A stretch of DNA of 64,000 bases. Origin: Macrotis lagotis. Taxonomy: Eukaryota; Chordata; Mammalia; Peramelemorphia; Peramelidae. The notes below the pieces were generated by a model. It was not told the origin of the DNA. It did no database searches and was given only the letters and a program-made list of their open reading frames with translations. The stretch covers positions 426,837,890 through 426,901,889 of the forward strand of contig NC_133658.1 of the NCBI RefSeq assembly GCF_037893015.1. The letters are read 5' to 3'. The position numbers and the translations under genes were made by a program. Shown here one piece after another: positions 5,729-52,160 of this stretch; position 1 is the stretch's first letter, and every line of letters begins with the position of its first letter.

Positions 5729-7777
<2,049 letters not shown>

Positions 7778-43252: not shown

Positions 43253-44340
43253 CTGAAGATGGAGCCAAGATGACAGAGTAAAGGCAGGAATTCCCACAAA
43301 TTCTTCCCCAGACCACTTTGAATACCTTTAAAATAATGAGACTAACCAAATTCTAGAGTGGCAGAACCCACAAAAAAGAGCAAGTGAAATAATTTTCCAC
43401 CCCAAGACAATCTGGAAGATCCATGGAAAGGATGTGTTAAACCATAGTCAGAAAGGGTCCACAGCGCAGTCCAGACTGTACTGGAGCATACTGGTACCAG
43501 CATCCAGGCACATACTTAAGGACAGGGTCCCTTGGGGTCCTTGAGTGCATGGCAGCTGGAGTGATTGCCATATTTCTCAGTCCAAGGATTGCCAAGGATA
43601 ATTGGGAAGCTCAGGAGGAAAACTCTGTCACATCAAAGTGAAAGCACAGCCTAGTCCAGCAGAAGCCTCAGTACAGTTCCAGCCTTGGGGGAACCAGGAG
43701 CAGACCTGGTAGACACCCAGCAGGGAGTCACCCTGCAACTGATTCCATAGTACTCAGCCCACTAATGGTAAGGGGATCGGGGAGTCTGCAGAGGTCTTTT
43801 TGATCTCTCAGAGTCAGGACTCTGTTTCTTTGTCCATACACAGATCCAAATCAAAGCCTGGGGCCCCAGTCTCAGGAAAAGGAGTTTTTCTGTCAAAGAA
43901 GATCAGGGACCCTCGTCACAGTTCCAGGGCAGAGGGGAAGTCTTGTGTTTATCCACTAATCAGAAAACAGGCCCGTTCTTCTAGCAGTCACTGTCTCTCA
44001 TAAGACCTTGTAGGAGTTGAGATTCCTAGGGGGTGTTCCTGAAAATAGCTCCAAAAACCCTCAAAAGCTTGCAACAGTGAGTCCTCTTCCCCCCTCCCTG
44101 CCCTAAAGCAGAACCCCACCTTAATAAAGACTTAAAATCGAGTCATAGGATGCGGAAATGAGCAAACAACAAAAGCAAAAAATCTGATCATATACAATTA
44201 CAATGTTCCTATAGAGTATCAAATTGCACATTTAGATTGTGACAGCATCAAAACTTCTATATCCAAAATCTGCAAGAAAAATAAGAATTAGTCTCAGGTT
44301 ATGGAAGAGCTCAAAAAAAGATTTTGAAAATCAAGTAAGG
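43253..44340 (+). mobile_element. Half-L1-like element, 5'UTR and start of ORF1
   Basis: It starts with gaagatggagccaagatgac, the standard L1 5' end, followed by about 1 kb of GC-richer 5'UTR. Near its right end it enters ORF1 (gaagagctcaaaaaaagatt, Leu-Lys-Lys-Asp-Phe-Glu). It is interrupted at 44340 by a retrovirus-like insertion and continues at 50361. A 10-bp duplicated target, aaaaaagaaa, is possible at 43243-43252 and 52161-52170, but that string is low-complexity. Confidence 0.8.
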
Positions 44341-47300
44341 ACTGTCTGATTTGGGTATTCCATCCCCAGGCAGTCCCTGGGAATAAAAATCTCCACACTT
44401 ATCAAACTCTGGTCTCCATCTCGCTCAACATTTGGAGGCCCCAGAGAGATCTTGGTGTTTTGTGTCACCAAAGGAGACCATGGGAGCCTTGAGTTTAGGT
44501 TCGAATGGACTGTCTCTCCCTTTCCTATGGGACCTGGCCCCTGAGGATGTTCCAGGGCCCCAGGACTAGGTAGACATAGTCTTAGTATGGACCTCTCCTT
44601 GACTGCAATCCCCCATTCAGCTTAAGTGGAGATCCTGTTATACCTCCAGAGGTAAGCTTGTTCTGGTTCTGAGTCTAGACATTGGGTTGCAGGGGAATTC
44701 TGTATCACATGTGATGTCCAGGTCCCGTCTTTTGGGTGCTCCTTACAACAAACAGCAAGGAACACATTTGGTCAGCCTTTGGGAGGGAGAGCTAGTCAGA
44801 TGCAATGCTGAAATCTCCCCTCACAGAATTCCTGAGATGTCAGGAATTTGCCATTGGCCTGTGTTTGTAGATATGTGTTGAGCTTGTCAGTTTGGAAAAT
44901 TCTGTTGCATTTCTGTGATCTGTGCTTGTGCCTCATCTTTCTTTATGTGTTTAGATTGTCTATTTATGTGTGTGTTTGGGTTCTTCTATTGATTTGTTAA
45001 ATGGGGAGAAAAGTTCCCCTAAAAATTTCCTTGGATTGCTTCATTTAAATTGTTGCTCTTTATTTCTAGGCAGTATTCATCTAATGCCCTTGAACCAGCT
45101 TTCTACCTGTGTTACAGTGGGTAATATGATCCCTCCCTCCTCACCCCTGCATTGTCTCTTGAGTACTTCCTAGAGGGATTTTTAAAAATTTTTATTTAAA
45201 AAAGGAATGGATTTTAGTGTTAAATTGATTGAGGCCAAATGACTCACCATGTTATTTTACTATTATGAGAAGGGCCCCCTATTCCTTGTTTATTTTCCCT
45301 TCTCTTTCCCATTCTCCTTGATTCTGTGCTGCCCTAGTGTTTCCCCCTCCCTCCCCCTTTCAGGAGAGAGAGAGTTCCTTTAGGAACAATTAGTAAAGTG
45401 TTAAAAGGGACCTTATTTTGAATAAGTATAGGGGAAACTAAATAGTCTTTTTCCAGAATGACATGGCATCATTAGAACTTCAGGAGTTTATCAATGTAGA
45501 TTCAGATATTAGTTATTACAGAAAATTATAGGACATGTAAGGGTTGAAGAATAGAAGATCAAGCCCCCCCCCCAGAAAGATTTTAGGATAGTCTCTCTAT
45601 AAAAGTTATTCAGTTTACTCTATTTGAAGAAGGGGAGCAGGGAATATTCTAATTAGTCTAAGGAGTTTTTGAATGACTGTTTGCCTTCTCCAGGATTTTA
45701 GCAGTTATAATCAAGAAATGTTAAATATTAAAACCTTGGAATGGAAAATGTATTGTGAAAAGTGAAAGCATATCTGTGGTTTATATAGCTGTAAAAGCTA
45801 TGTGACTCTAGTTCAGAACAGTATGAATTAAGGTTAAGAAGAGCTAATGAAAAGGAATGGTGCAACAGTATATTAAGCTGTATAGTCTGGGACAGAGGTT
45901 TGGAAAGAACTGGAAAGAAAATCCAGACATGAAGACGATTGGGGCTTTTGAACCATTTGTTAAGTATGGAAAGTGGTAAAAGCATGTAGATAGAAGGCTT
46001 GAGCAGGGTTAACATTGTACACCAAAGATGGATTTGGGGAACTTTGGAAAATGGGTTACAAATCATTGTAAGAAAAAAAAGGAAGTATAGAACTATAAGT
46101 CTATAGGGAGATTTGTGTTTATATGAGGTTGGGGTGATTTAAAAATTGCATTAAATTGGTACTTTTTGCAATGTTTGGCAATGAATTGAATGAAAAAGTA
46201 ATAAACCCCATAAAGTGAAAAGTTTGATATGAAAGCAATTGCTAGGTAAATGTTAATTTTATTATGTTATTATTGTTCCTATAATGTGATAATCTAAAGA
46301 TACATGTAAATTGAATTAAGGGGTTCAGAAAAATATGCTTGAGTTTGGATTCTGATGTTTTATGGACCCTCCAGAGTCATGGGAGTCAGGACAGACTTGC
46401 GAGTTAACTTTAGAATAACTAAAGAAGGGGAAGGTAATATTTTACACTGATTGGAATGTAGTTCATGTATTTGGGAAAAATCTGGAGTGAGTGAGTAATA
46501 ATAAAGAGTAAAGGTAAAGAATTAGTACATAGTACTTTGATATCTCAAACTGTAGTGAATCTCCACTTCCCAGAACATAGCACATTCTAATATTAAGAAA
46601 TGTTGGTCAGTAATTATAGAAAGCTCTTATCAGTGAGAGCATTGAGAAATTAGAATTTCACTGATAAAGATAAAAAGAATTTGCAAACTTTTTAGGCTTT
46701 TGAAAAGAAAATGGTTTAAGACTAATTTGAATATGACTTTTGGAATTTAAGAGATGTATGAAGAAAATCTTGTAGTCATAAGAAGGGATTTTTAAAGCAA
46801 CAATTGGTCTTAATTCTTTGTATTTTTAAAGTTTTAGGGAGTAAAGAAAGCATACATGTAATTGAAATATGCTGTGTACAATTAGTAAACTTTGTATAAG
46901 AACAATTTAAGCTATACTTTTTGAGACATTAAAATTGTTTTGTAATAACAAATTATGAATGAATTGAAGTTTCATCTATCACATTTTTAAAGATTTGTTA
47001 TGAGAAAGAAAACTAGAAGAATACCTTGCCAATGGATTATAGTTTTCAAAGGTCTTTTTGGACCAGAAAATTTGTGAAAGGCTTTGTTTTTCACCTCATG
47101 TTTATGAAAGGGAATATTGATATGTGAGATCAATGTAGTTTATTATCTGTTAAAAAGAGGAAATTATACATATAACTGTAACACTGCCATGGGTAATAAG
47201 TGTACATTGAGCTTTTGAAATTATTGTATAAAACTAACATTGATAGAGAATCTTATTTTCTTTGAAAATAGAAGTGGATTTGGAAGAAGAGATAAAAAAA

Positions 47301-50300
47301 GCTTATGAAGCAAAAAATTCAGAACAAGTTTGTGTGTAGAAGATAATTATAAAGTTAACTTTAAGAGAATGAGATGTCAGCATGTTATGTTTCATGTAGG
47401 TTAAGAATTTAATGTTTTCATTATTTCTTAACTGCAAGATACCTTTTCCAATGATATTGAATAATGGTGAGGGGTTTTGGAAAATGATTAGAAAATTGAA
47501 AATTATGTAACCCTAATTAGATGACTTACCAATAAGTAAAATTGAAGGGCGGTGTCAGGCATGTGATCTGCTTATGGAAATGTAAACTATTTTACTGTAA
47601 TGATGTCAAAGCTGGAATTAATGATTGTTAATGATGGAAATTATCAAAGCATGACCCCCTGGGTTCCCCAAAATTTTAAATGATGTGTTGGACCTTGCTC
47701 TAGATCTGTAGGTCCAGGTATACTGTAATAATGGAAAGATTATTTTGTGAAATATAGTTTTTAATGTGTTACACTTATTACTGTTTTGTTAAATTTAGAG
47801 ACCTCAGCCCCTGAATTTCTAAACCCCCTCCCCCCCTCCCCCATCACCAGGTCCCATCTGTTCCTCCTTGGAAGATTCCTTAGCTAGATCAAAAGTGGGG
47901 AAAAGGAAAGCAGGGAATTCAATCAACATTCCTAGACTTGTCTCCCTTTCCCCCTGAACCAGTCTACTCCCTCCTCAAAAGGTTCCTTCCCTGAATAAAA
48001 AGGGGAGAAGAGGGTAGCAGGAGGATGGTGGTGAACTGGAAGAAACATTCTTATCTCAAAAACAATAGAAAGAGAGAGACAATAAAATCCCCTGCAGCAG
48101 GTTTTGAGTATCTCTTGGTTTTTCTTGTCACATTGTCAGAATGGGTAGAATCTAATGAAACAAGCCTTGGAAGTAGTTTAAAAATTCTAAAGGAGCCCCT
48201 CTCTGATTTGACCTTCTGCTAGGAATCAGGTCAAACAATGGCCCTGCCTTTACAGCTAAAATCTCTCAAGGAATACTCCAGATACTGGGAGAACTTGACT
48301 GTTTTTTGAATGTTTAGAAAGTAACCCTATTTAATGTATTCCAATGACAGGGACACTCAGAGTACATATATGTGATATGTGTATAAGGAAGGGAGCATTT
48401 TTAGATCATGGGACTTTTAATGAATTTTCTTTTTATAACAGATACCAGGATGGTAAGCAAAAGGAAATGCTACTGGGTAAATGTCATTTTCTTGCAGCTG
48501 AGGAAGCCAAGATGTCAGGTGACTGGGATGGGCAGCCAAAGTTGCGGCTTCTAAGTATGGCTGAGGTTGGACCCCTTTGACTTGATTTCCCCAAAATGAC
48601 TTTTGGATAATATCTCACCTGGAAGAATAAATATGGCCTAAGTTATTTGACTTACCCATGTGATCTCTGCCTGGACACTGACATTTAATACTTATATCTG
48701 TAAAAATGTCCTGTATCTTTATAGTTACTAGGCAAAGTAGAAAAAGAAATTTTAGGTGAATTGGATCTAATAGCCAGAGATAAGTTAGGGGTATTAGGTG
48801 TGTGACTCTGACACCTGCTAACAGCTAAATGTTAAGATAGCAATTAAGTTTCTTTAATTTTTAGAAGGGGTATTTAGGTAAGAAGAATAGGAGATTCGAA
48901 GGATAGCTATATTTTTAAGGTCTAGCTTAAGGAAAGGAATGTGAGTCATATAGGTATATCAGGAAAAGGAAAATCAATGGTCTATTTGAGAACATTTTGA
49001 AAAATTTCATTTTGGTTAAGGATGTTTGAGCCATTATTGTAATAAGAGCAAAGTTTTTTTTTTTTTTTATTTTAAACTATATGCGGAGTACTCTGAACTA
49101 AGATAATTGTTGTATGTCTGTTACAAGCTTAGGTCAGTATGACAATTCTCATTGGGAGTTTGCTCATATAGTAAAACACTAATGAAAGTTTATTGTGTTA
49201 TAGTTAAGTATGTGCATCAATATGGCAATAAGGGAAAATGTAAATTGCAATAAGCTCCAAAATCTCATTATCTTGTGAGGAAAACATGTGTTTTGATCTG
49301 AGTAAAATGTTAAGCAGATTCTTTACCAGAAGACAAAGTCTCAACTAGTCAGCTGAGCTGGAAAGGACTTTTTGGAACAAATTCAGAAGATGCAGAAGGA
49401 CATTGGAACTCTCCAGGAGAGAAGAGAAGAAAGGAGAGACACCGGACCAGTTCATCTCTACGATTTCTCACCTATATACATTGTATAGTGAAAGGATCTG
49501 TTTTTGTAAGCCCCCCCTTGATTCTGTAAGTGGGACACCCCTAACTTATGCCCTTCCCCTTATGAAGAGGAGAGGCAGGGTGCAAATGTTCTCCATTGAA
49601 AGAAAAGGAGGGAGACTATTGGGTGGTATGTTTATATCCTATCTAAGGAGAGTCTTATCTCTGATTTAGCTGGCCTGTACAACTTAAAGAGATATGTGGA
49701 TTGAGATGTAATGATGATACCTGGATCCTTTGTAAAGATGCTTATAGTTCATGCTTGTCCGGGTTATGAAGATGATAACTCAAGGGTTTGAGTCATTTTG
49801 AAAAAAAAGTGAGGAATGAAGTACAGTATCAATGTTTATGAAATCCCTGTATGGAAAGGGGTCTCCAACATCCTCTGGGCCCTGAGGAATTCCTTAGAAA
49901 TATAAATTTGGCCAGGTGCCTTTGGGTTTCAAAATAATCAAGTACTTAAGTACTTGACCTGGGGAGCCAGGATATAGCATTAAATTTTTTGAAGAATCAC
50001 AAAGCACCTTCATCAGCCTAATTATCTTGCTGTAGCTGTTAAATTCCAGGACTCCTCCCCCTTCACCAGGTGTGACTGGAACAATAATGTACTAAATTCC
50101 TCAAACCTGTGGGAAGCTCATGAATATGTACCTCCTCCTATCTCAGGAAATATGTTCAAACAAAGACCCTTTCTGTCTGTAGGGAAACCCATATTTACAT
50201 ATGATAAGATGATCTTTGCTTCTGTATCCTGTCTGCTCTCAGTATCCCCCCCAAACACTATAAAAACCCTATCCTCTGAACACTCAGGTACTGTCTGATT

Positions 50301-50360
50301 TGGATATTCCATCCCAAGGCAGTCCCTGGGAATAAAGGTCTCCACACTTATCAAAAAAAG
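44341..50360 (+). mobile_element. Class I retrovirus-like fossil in processed (R to R plus poly(A)) form
   Basis: A broken endogenous retrovirus copy of about 6 kb. Parts: R at 44341-44404, very short U5 to about 44430, primer-binding-site-like TGG at 44433, a long leader, an internal region without intact genes, a polypurine tract at about 49799-49816, U3 from the TG at 49817, a TATA motif at 50259, then R at 50290-50353 and an A-run at 50353-50359. U3 is missing on the left and U5 on the right, which is the structure of a genomic RNA, not of a provirus. A 15-bp duplication, gaaaatcaagtaagg (44326-44340 and 50361-50375), is too long for retroviral integration but typical of L1. The layout suggests a gammaretrovirus-like class. 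The internal part looks shortened and has many breaks. The two R copies differ at about 4 of 64 positions, so it is moderately old. Confidence 0.85.
49817..50353 (+). repeat. 3' U3-R of the retrovirus-like fossil
   Basis: U3 is about 473 bp. The TATA motif at 50259 lies 31 bp before the first base of R (50290), and the left end of the inserted copy begins at the equivalent base (44341). An AATAAA in R (about 50330-50335) precedes the A-run by some 18 bp. These fit transcription start and polyadenylation sites. Confidence 0.85.
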
Positions 50361-52160
50361 GAAAATCAAGTAAGGAATTAGGACAAAATACTGAAGAAAA
50401 TTATATCTTGAAAACCAGTGTGGGTCAAATGGGGAAAAAGACAGTACAAAAGAAAATGAGGAGAAGAACGCCTTAAAAAAACAGAACTGGTCAGATAGAA
50501 AAGAAGATACAAAAAACAAAAACTCTCTGAAGAAAATAACTCCTTCAAATGTAGACAGGAGCCAAAGGAAGCTGATGTCTTTGAGAAATTAAGAAGCAAT
50601 AAAACAAAACCAAAAGAATGAAAAACTAGAAGAAAATGTGAAATATCTCATTGGAAAAATAACTTACCTGGAAAACAGATGCAGGAGAGATAATTTAAAA
50701 TTTTTGGGCTACCTGAAAGTCATGACAAAAAACATACTCTAAACTTCATTTTTCAAGAAATTCTCCAGAAAATTGCCCTGATATCCTAGAAGCAGAAGGT
50801 AAAATAGAATTTGAATGAATCTACCAAACATTTCCTGAAAGAGATCTCAAAATGAAAACTGCCAGAAGTATTATATTCAAATTTCAGAACTCCAAGTAAA
50901 AGAGAAAATATTACTAGCAGCCAGAAAGAATCAATTCATATATTGTGTAGCTACAGTCAGGATAACACAACATTTGGCAGGTTCTACATCAAGGCCTCAA
51001 CAGGGCTTGTGATATGATATTCCAGAGGGCAAAAGTGCTTGGATTATAAGCAAGAATCAACTACTCAGCAAAACTAAACATACTCTTTCAGGGGAAAAGA
51101 TGAACATTCAATGAAAGGGGATTTTCAAACTTTCCTGATGAAATGACCAAAGCTGAACAGAAAATTTATTCTTCAAGTACAGGACTCAGGTGATGTATAG
51201 AAAGCATGAATGGGAAGGATAAATTATGAGGCACTTATTGATGCTGAATTGCTTGTATTCCTGCATGGGAAGATGATACTGATAATTCATAGGAACCTTC
51301 TTATTTATTTGTGAAGTTGGAAGGAGCATATATTGATAAGTCACTGGAAGGAGTTGAATTTTAAGGTTTAATATATTAAAATGATGGAGTTGTGGGGAGG
51401 GGAGAAATGTACTGAGTGAAAGGGAAAGGAGAGGTAGATTGGGGCAAGTTATTTCACTGAAAAGGGGCAAGAAAAATATTTAAGATGTGGAAGAATGGGA
51501 AGATGAGGGGAAGTGAGTGAGCTTTTACTCTCATTGGAAGTGGCTCAGAGAGGGAATAACATACACTTCAATTGACTATAGAATTTTATCTTACCCTAAA
51601 GGAAAATAGGAGAAGAAAGGGATAGGAGAAAGGGGATAAGTGGGGAAGGGTAGTGGGTGTAGGTGATAGAAGCAAGGGAAGATCATGGGAGAGGGTAATC
51701 AGATACAAAACAGTTTTCAGGAGGCCAGGGTGAAAGGAGAGAGAGAAAATAGAGTAAATGAGAGTGGGGGGAATAGGATGGAGGGAAATACAACTAGTAA
51801 TAGCAACTGTGGGAAATAAAAACATATTTAAGCAATTTCTCTGATGGACGTATGATAAAGACCACTATCTATCCCAAAGTAAGAGCTGATCGTGTCTGAA
51901 TACAGGCTGAAGCACACTTTTTTCTTCCACTTTTTCTTTCTTGAGATTTCTCTTTCTGAATGGGGATGGGAGTGGGGGTTCTGTTTATCTTAACAACATG
52001 ATGATTGTGGTAATGTGTTTCATGGCTACACATATTTAAACTATTTCAAGTAACTTACTTTCTCAATAGGGGGAGTAGGGTAGGAGGAAGGGAAAGAATT
52101 GGGAACTCAATGTTTTGGAAGTAAATGTTGAAACTTGCTTTTGCATATAGTTGGGATTAT
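50361..52160 (+). mobile_element. Half-L1-like element, rest of ORF1 and 3'UTR
   Basis: ORF1 resumes at gaaaatcaagtaaggaatta. Landmarks are ttttgggctacctgaaagtc (the RRM start of ORF1p), aatttcagaactccaagtaa and gcagccagaaagaatcaatt, with ORF1 ending near 51190. It has several stops and frame changes. Instead of ORF2, a purine-rich region follows, then an L1-style 3'UTR (ttatcttaacaacatgatga, gggagtagggtaggaggaag, gaactcaatgttttggaagt) that ends A-rich at about 52160. Total length without the insertion is about 2.9 kb. An ORF1-only layout is that of half-L1 (HAL1) elements; deletion of ORF2 from an ordinary L1 is the alternative. Confidence 0.7.

What the first reader, a model, noticed from the sequence alone, without database searches (positions are those of the whole stretch)
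44326..50375. Retrovirus-like fossil copied in by L1 machinery (processed retroviral RNA)
Seen in sequence: the element begins at R, ends with R plus an A-run, lacks U3 on the left and U5 on the right, and has a 15-bp perfect target duplication. A TATA motif sits 31 bp before R in the right-hand copy. Known: proviral integration gives two full LTRs and a 4-6 bp duplication, whereas L1-mediated copying of mRNA gives poly(A) and longer duplications, as in the human HERV-W processed copies. Inference: this is a processed copy of a retroviral transcript in a marsupial.
Basis: partly seen in the sequence, partly recalled or inferred. Interest (0 to 1): 0.85.

Follow-up and report, generated by a model that had tools for sequence, protein, structure and literature searches.

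The report
L1-copied RNA of a retrovirus-like element
In this mammalian genome an RNA of a retrovirus-like element was most likely copied into another mobile element by the cell's LINE-1 machinery rather than by a viral integrase, a process well known for one human virus family and here seen as a rare event in another.

Summary
The element runs from R (44341) to R (50352), ends in a short A-run, and is flanked by a perfect 16-bp repeat (44326-44341, 50361-50376). The host genome could be searched. The family has ordinary U3-R-U5 LTRs; in 22 solo-type LTRs the duplication is 4 bp (10 perfect, 8 with one mismatch; control 7 of 462 pairs). All 39 other listed 5' ends have U3 before R. Of 39 other listed 3' ends, 35 continue into U5, 3 are unresolved, 1 (contig C5) ends in R plus A7. 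The interior is colinear with one provirus (90-92%), so the RNA was unspliced. The target is a LINE-1 ORF1 copy. A late check weakens one leg: in 4 of 8 fetched paralogs this LINE-1 carries an imperfect second copy of the 16-mer 66 bp downstream, so the right-hand repeat, and even the A-run, can also be read as LINE-1 sequence with a 13-bp deletion. A true duplication stays the better reading, but is not proved. R-to-R ends and the family contrast stand. It works like HERV-W processed pseudogenes, but is rare here. A second insertion (C2) carries R alone plus an A-rich tail, fused to SINEs, with a 14-bp repeat.

The parts
44326..44341 (+). left copy of the 16-bp repeat, most likely a target-site duplication of 15-16 bp (last A shared with R)
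   Evidence: LINE-1 sequence by paralogs
44341..44403 (+). R at the 5' end
   Evidence: 4 differences in 63 from right R; in 39 of 39 other listed 5' ends U3 lies before this point, here it does not
44404..44430 (+). U5, 9 bp shorter than in family members, ends in CA
44433..44450 (+). primer-binding site TGGAGGCCCCAGAGAGAT; L025 and L044 read TGGAGGCCCCAGCGAGAT (tRNA-Thr by recall)
44451..49799 (+). decayed non-coding interior; colinear with the provirus at C2:66480877-66487333 at 90-92%
48207..48314 (+). possible integrase relic (NNGPAF in one frame piece), seen by eye only
   Evidence: no Pfam or PDB match
49800..49816 (+). polypurine tract next to U3
49817..50289 (+). U3, with TATAAAA at 50259
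50290..50352 (+). R at the 3' end, with AATAAA at 50331
50353..50360 (+). short A-run (7 A, then G) where U5 should be
   Evidence: could in part be LINE-1 sequence
50361..50376 (+). right copy of the 16-bp repeat
   Evidence: rival origin
43335..44325 (+). target LINE-1 (ORF1 part), left half
   Evidence: aligns to window 8965-8040 on the minus strand
50377..51198 (+). target LINE-1, right half
   Evidence: aligns to window 7942-7783 and 5728-5090, minus strand

Best explanation
A full-length, unspliced, polyadenylated RNA of a retrovirus-like LTR element was reverse-transcribed and inserted by LINE-1 proteins. The RNA starts at the LTR transcription start (R) and ends at its poly(A) site (end of R), so the copy lacks U3 on the left and U5 on the right. 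LINE-1 endonuclease nicked a LINE-1 copy at TTTT|GAAAA, the tail primed on the nick, and a 15-16 bp target duplication most likely resulted. Shown here: ends, target, contrast with the family, colinearity with one provirus. Inferred: the enzyme, the tail as primer, and the duplication as such. The insert is old: its two R copies differ by 4 of 63.
For: Both ends fall at RNA ends, not LTR ends. 39 of 39 other listed 5' ends have U3 before R. All 39 other LTRs listed have U5, in L041 beyond an insertion; 35 of 39 other 3' ends listed have U5. The 16-bp perfect repeat contrasts with 4-bp duplications in 22 solo-type LTRs: 10 perfect, 8 with one mismatch, 4 with more, control 7 of 462. L097-L100 have TTTT followed by the exact first 15 bases of the repeat. 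The interior is colinear with one provirus, largest absent block 72 bp. An independent insertion at C2:219561867 carries R cut at the same start and within a base or so at the end, plus an A-rich tail, inside a unit bounded by a 14-bp repeat after TTTT.
Against: LINE-1 paralogs L098-L101 hold an imperfect second copy of the word 66 bp on, and L097 a near copy 21 bp on. In all four of L098-L101 the best alignment of the window's right flank uses that second copy with one 13-bp gap and takes in most of the A-run, so duplication and tail could both be LINE-1 sequence. The duplication reading needs instead an about 85-bp LINE-1 deletion that ends at the duplication, with AAGG microhomology. The tail is short and followed by GG. 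Of three provirus interiors compared, only the one on C2 is colinear throughout; those on C9 and C4 lack or replace large parts. The integrase-like piece has no database support.
Confidence: 0.89

Rival explanations
1. An RNA-derived copy (R to R) went in without a duplication: about 50 bp of the target LINE-1 were lost, and the right-hand 16-mer is the LINE-1's own second copy after a 13-bp deletion. The enzyme could still be LINE-1, or the copy could have been captured at a break.
For: Second copy in L098-L101; the right flank aligns best to it, most of the A-run included.
Against: The second copies read GAAAACCAAGTCAGC, GAAAATTAAGTCAGC or GAAAAATCAAGTCAGC, 3 edits from the 15-mer. The 13-bp deletion would have to extend the match by chance to a perfect 16, and the left end would have to lie at a LINE-1-like nick distance by chance.
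Confidence: 0.07
2. An ordinary provirus that later lost U3 on the left and U5 on the right by two deletions.
For: The family does integrate normally, and deletions are common in old copies.
Against: Both losses would have to stop at the two ends of R; none of the 39 other listed 5' ends shows such a loss, and the outer repeat would be unexplained or a LINE-1 relic.
Confidence: 0.02
3. Target-primed reverse transcription by another LINE enzyme (for example RTE/BovB).
For: Marsupial genomes also carry RTE-type elements (recalled, not tested).
Against: A-tail, TTTT|GAAAA and a 15-16 bp repeat are the LINE-1 pattern. An actin processed pseudogene in the window shows that mRNA copying occurs here, not which enzyme did it.
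Confidence: 0.02

Closest known systems
HERV-W processed pseudogenes (primates)
   Same: R-U5 at the left, U3-R at the right, poly(A) tail, TT/AAAA-like site, 5-15 bp duplication, as described in passages of PMC5537654 and PMC5016936
   Different: Different ERV family and host; tail and duplication less secure here. For HERV-W 135 of 213 loci are processed (PMC5775608, passage); here the window copy is the only such one of 40 listed 5' ends, and window copy plus one candidate are 2 of 40 listed 3' ends.
Non-autonomous class I-like LTR elements with decayed interiors
   Same: TG...CA LTRs, 4-bp duplication, primer-binding site, polypurine tract, no long open frames in this copy
   Different: This copy was not integrated through its LTRs.
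LINE-1 processed pseudogenes of cellular mRNA
   Same: Same kind of ends; one actin copy lies in the same window
   Different: The template here was a retrovirus-like RNA with R at both ends.

Membership tests
LINE-1 processed ERV pseudogene | R-U5 left end without U3 | tested here: met
LINE-1 processed ERV pseudogene | U3-R right end without U5 | tested here: met
LINE-1 processed ERV pseudogene | poly(A) tail | tested here: inconclusive
   7 As, 4 or more untemplated, but alignable to LINE-1
LINE-1 processed ERV pseudogene | duplication longer than the retroviral 4-6 bp | tested here: inconclusive
   perfect 16-bp repeat against 4 bp in the family, but a LINE-1 internal copy is a possible source
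LINE-1 processed ERV pseudogene | TT|AAAA-like endonuclease site | tested here: met
   TTTT|GAAAA in the target and in L097-L100; one base off the consensus
HERV-W group | sequence membership in HERV-W | not tested
   no HERV-W sequence was compared
Retroviral LTR element family | LTRs, primer-binding site, polypurine tract, short duplication in other copies | tested here: met
Retroviral LTR element family | gag/pol homology | tested here: inconclusive
   30 of 45 stop-to-stop pieces of 30 aa or more against Pfam: no retroviral match, one sub-threshold match to SICA_alpha; one piece against PDB: none

The most novel reading that the evidence does not exclude
LINE-1 copies retrovirus-like RNA outside HERV-W at a low basal rate, and it can also use very short LTR transcripts: the C2 insertion looks like a 63-nt R-only polyadenylated RNA (start at the LTR promoter, stop at the same LTR's poly(A) site) joined to SINE RNA by template switching in one insertion.
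Probability: 0.35. Interest if true: 0.6.

Novelty: new member of a known kind. Interest (0 to 1): 0.48.

Why it matters
[quoted passage not shown] A case in another ERV family and host, with its rate against normal copies, gives a baseline: what must be explained in HERV-W is the high rate, not the ability. Processed copies also mark transcription start and poly(A) site of an extinct element almost to the base.

Tried and rejected
Protein identity of the interior: 30 of 45 stop-to-stop pieces against Pfam gave no retroviral family, only one sub-threshold SICA_alpha match; the integrase-like piece gave nothing in the PDB. Rfam (gathering thresholds) and tRNA scans of the window: nothing. The primer-binding site 18-mer in papers: one paper, on vampire bat microRNAs by its title. 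SINE words in papers: 94 papers hold at least one of four words; 12 were listed, off topic by title, and the two long words have no occurrence in them.

Other processed copies: the R+A pattern gave 5 places, control (pattern read backwards) 1. Window: real. C5:111943653: R (with a SINE-like insert, by eye) plus A7 and no U5, but its 5' end is at the equivalent of window 48207 and no duplication was found, so candidate only. C2:219561867: R-only, composite, 14-bp repeat. C1:548684541: only about 24 nt of R, undecided. C9:242038444: no similarity to the element, chance. Sensitivity: of 73 fetched LTR stretches 35 have at most 1 and 59 at most 3 mismatches in the R part of the pattern, so about a fifth to a half of copies would be missed, and copies with shorter tails as well. 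A second pattern for the other LTR subfamily did not complete.

One search shows that this is wrong, and one search gives the rival; confidence was lowered from 0.95 to 0.89, interest from 0.5 to 0.48, and the duplication row of the membership test from met to inconclusive.
Full report
What is there. The window holds a 6.0-kb element from 44341 to 50352, on the plus strand. It begins with R-U5-primer-binding site and ends with polypurine tract-U3-R and a short A-run. The two R copies differ at 4 of 63 positions. A TATA box starts 31 nt before the right R, and AATAAA ends 16 nt before the A-run. A perfect 16-bp repeat flanks the whole; its last base is also the first base of R.

The target. Both flanks are LINE-1 ORF1-type sequence that recurs in the window at 8965-7783 and 5728-5090 on the minus strand. 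A frame piece of that window copy matches the LINE-1 dsRBD-like domain weakly, below its cut-off. With the two flanks joined, the host genome gives 3513 first-look candidates, 40 of them scored. Eight were fetched and aligned: L097-L100 read TTTTGAAAATCAAGTAAGG, L096 has one extra A, L101 one mismatch, L094, L095 and the window LINE-1 have diverged. So the left copy of the repeat is target sequence, at a LINE-1 endonuclease-like site one base off TT|AAAA.

A weak point. L098-L101 hold an imperfect second copy of the word 66 bp downstream, followed by GGTGAARGAATTAC; L097 has a near copy 21 bp on. The window's right flank aligns best to this second copy with a 13-bp gap, and that alignment takes in most of the A-run. 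Two readings follow. (1) Duplication: the target had, or later got, a deletion of about 85 bp between two AAGG words, and the insertion duplicated GAAAATCAAGTAAGG(A). (2) No duplication: about 50 bp of target were lost at insertion, and a 13-bp deletion in the second copy made the match perfect by chance. Reading 1 is preferred because the match is perfect over 16 bases, while the second copies lie 3 edits from the first 15, and because a microhomology deletion is commonplace; but it needs the deletion to end at the duplication. The search that would decide (and its repeats 129, 131, 133, 134, 136) did not complete. The RNA origin does not depend on this.

The family integrates normally. A search with U3-R gave 1192 first-look candidates, 40 scored, one of them the window copy. 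All 39 others have U5 after R, in L041 after an insertion. Of these, 22 stand without adjoining element sequence and were tested for duplications; the 17 next to interior sequence were left out. 10 of 22 have a perfect 4-bp duplication, 8 one mismatch, 4 more mismatches, none a 5- or 6-bp match; mismatched left-right pairs match in 7 of 462. Five neighbouring LTR pairs, taken as proviruses, are 91.7-96.7% identical, so the 6% between the two R copies fits an insertion during the family's active time; 63 bases allow no better date.

The window copy is the exception. Of 40 listed 5' ends the window is one; the other 39 have U3 before R (29, 9, and C9:95439066, which is L025). Of 40 listed 3' ends the window is one; of the other 39, 35 continue into U5 (30 of 34, plus L017, L020, L024, L028 and L047), three show no readable R in the fetched stretch (L111, L118, L126), and one, L102 on C5, ends in R plus A7 with no U5. 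Some listed places look like duplicates of each other (L042/L045, L054/L078, L131/L135), so the counts are not all independent, and all lists are capped at 40.

Unspliced template. Piece by piece, the interior aligns with the provirus at C2:66480877-66487333 at 90-92%; the largest block absent from the window copy is 72 bp, and blocks of 147 and 94 bp are present only in it. The proviruses on C9 and C4 lack or replace large middle parts, so interiors in this family vary.

A second mark of the same RNA ends. The pattern R-end plus A-run gave 5 places genome-wide with 1 in the control. One, on C2, holds R from (G)ACTGTC to CTTAT plus an A-rich tail, without U3 or U5. Upstream lie a 16-nt spacer, a SINE, another spacer and a further SINE, and the whole is bounded by AAACCTCAGCTACT on both sides, after TTTT on the left. 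Its SINE-to-R junction was found once in the genome at up to 3 mismatches. Reading: one LINE-1 insertion made from an R-only RNA and SINE RNA by template switching. The ends are shown; the route is inferred.

Mechanism. Best explanation: target-primed reverse transcription by LINE-1 of a full-length polyadenylated RNA. Shown: ends, target, family contrast, colinearity with one provirus. Inferred: enzyme, tail as primer, duplication, germline setting.

What is known. HERV-W processed pseudogenes are described with R-U5 and U3-R ends, poly(A), TT/AAAA and 5-15 bp duplications (PMC5537654 and PMC5016936, passages); 135 of 213 human loci are of this type (PMC5775608, passage). None were found for New World monkey ERV-W (PMC6995185, passages). 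A marsupial ERV survey (PMC11334065, passages) has no occurrence of 'processed pseudogene', 'LINE-1' or 'target site duplication' in its main text. Searches for marsupial or other non-primate cases listed no title announcing one: 25 of 117 papers listed; 15 of 36; 15 of 64; 3 of 3; 11 of 11; 6 of 6; 1 of 1. Most listed papers were not opened, the library lacks most subscription papers, and the original HERV-W papers were not read.

Limits. The retroviral nature rests on LTRs, primer-binding site, polypurine tract and 4-bp duplications; protein evidence is absent. The tRNA-Thr label and the LINE-1 site consensus beyond the cited passages are recalled.

Noticed in passing
L140 (C2:219561700-219563699, minus strand; R at 1761 of the reverse complement): A unit SINE-spacer-SINE-spacer-R-A-rich tail bounded by a 14-bp repeat AAACCTCAGCTACT after TTTT; its SINE-R junction was found once in the genome. 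Looks like one LINE-1 insertion made from an R-only LTR RNA plus SINE RNA.
   Followed up: partly
L139 and L102 (C5:111941332-111943675): Second copy ending in R plus A7 without U5, with a SINE-like insert in R; starts at the equivalent of window 48207 next to old LINE-1 sequence; no duplication found.
   Followed up: partly
LINE-1 paralogs L097-L101 and window 50361-50376: The LINE-1 ORF1 region at the insertion site carries an imperfect internal repeat (66 bp apart in L098-L101, 21 bp in L097), and about 85 bp there vary between copies.
   Followed up: partly
window 6597-7659, minus strand: Actin processed pseudogene (Pfam Actin, E 4.3e-72 and 4.3e-47) lying between two LINE-1 stretches (8965-7783 and 5728-5090).
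   Followed up: no
window 9380, 16139, 36993, 40401: Four copies of a tRNA-type SINE matching a recalled marsupial motif with 1-3 mismatches.
   Followed up: no
window 45600-47600: The interior is very AT-rich with a strong G over C skew; cause not examined.
   Followed up: no
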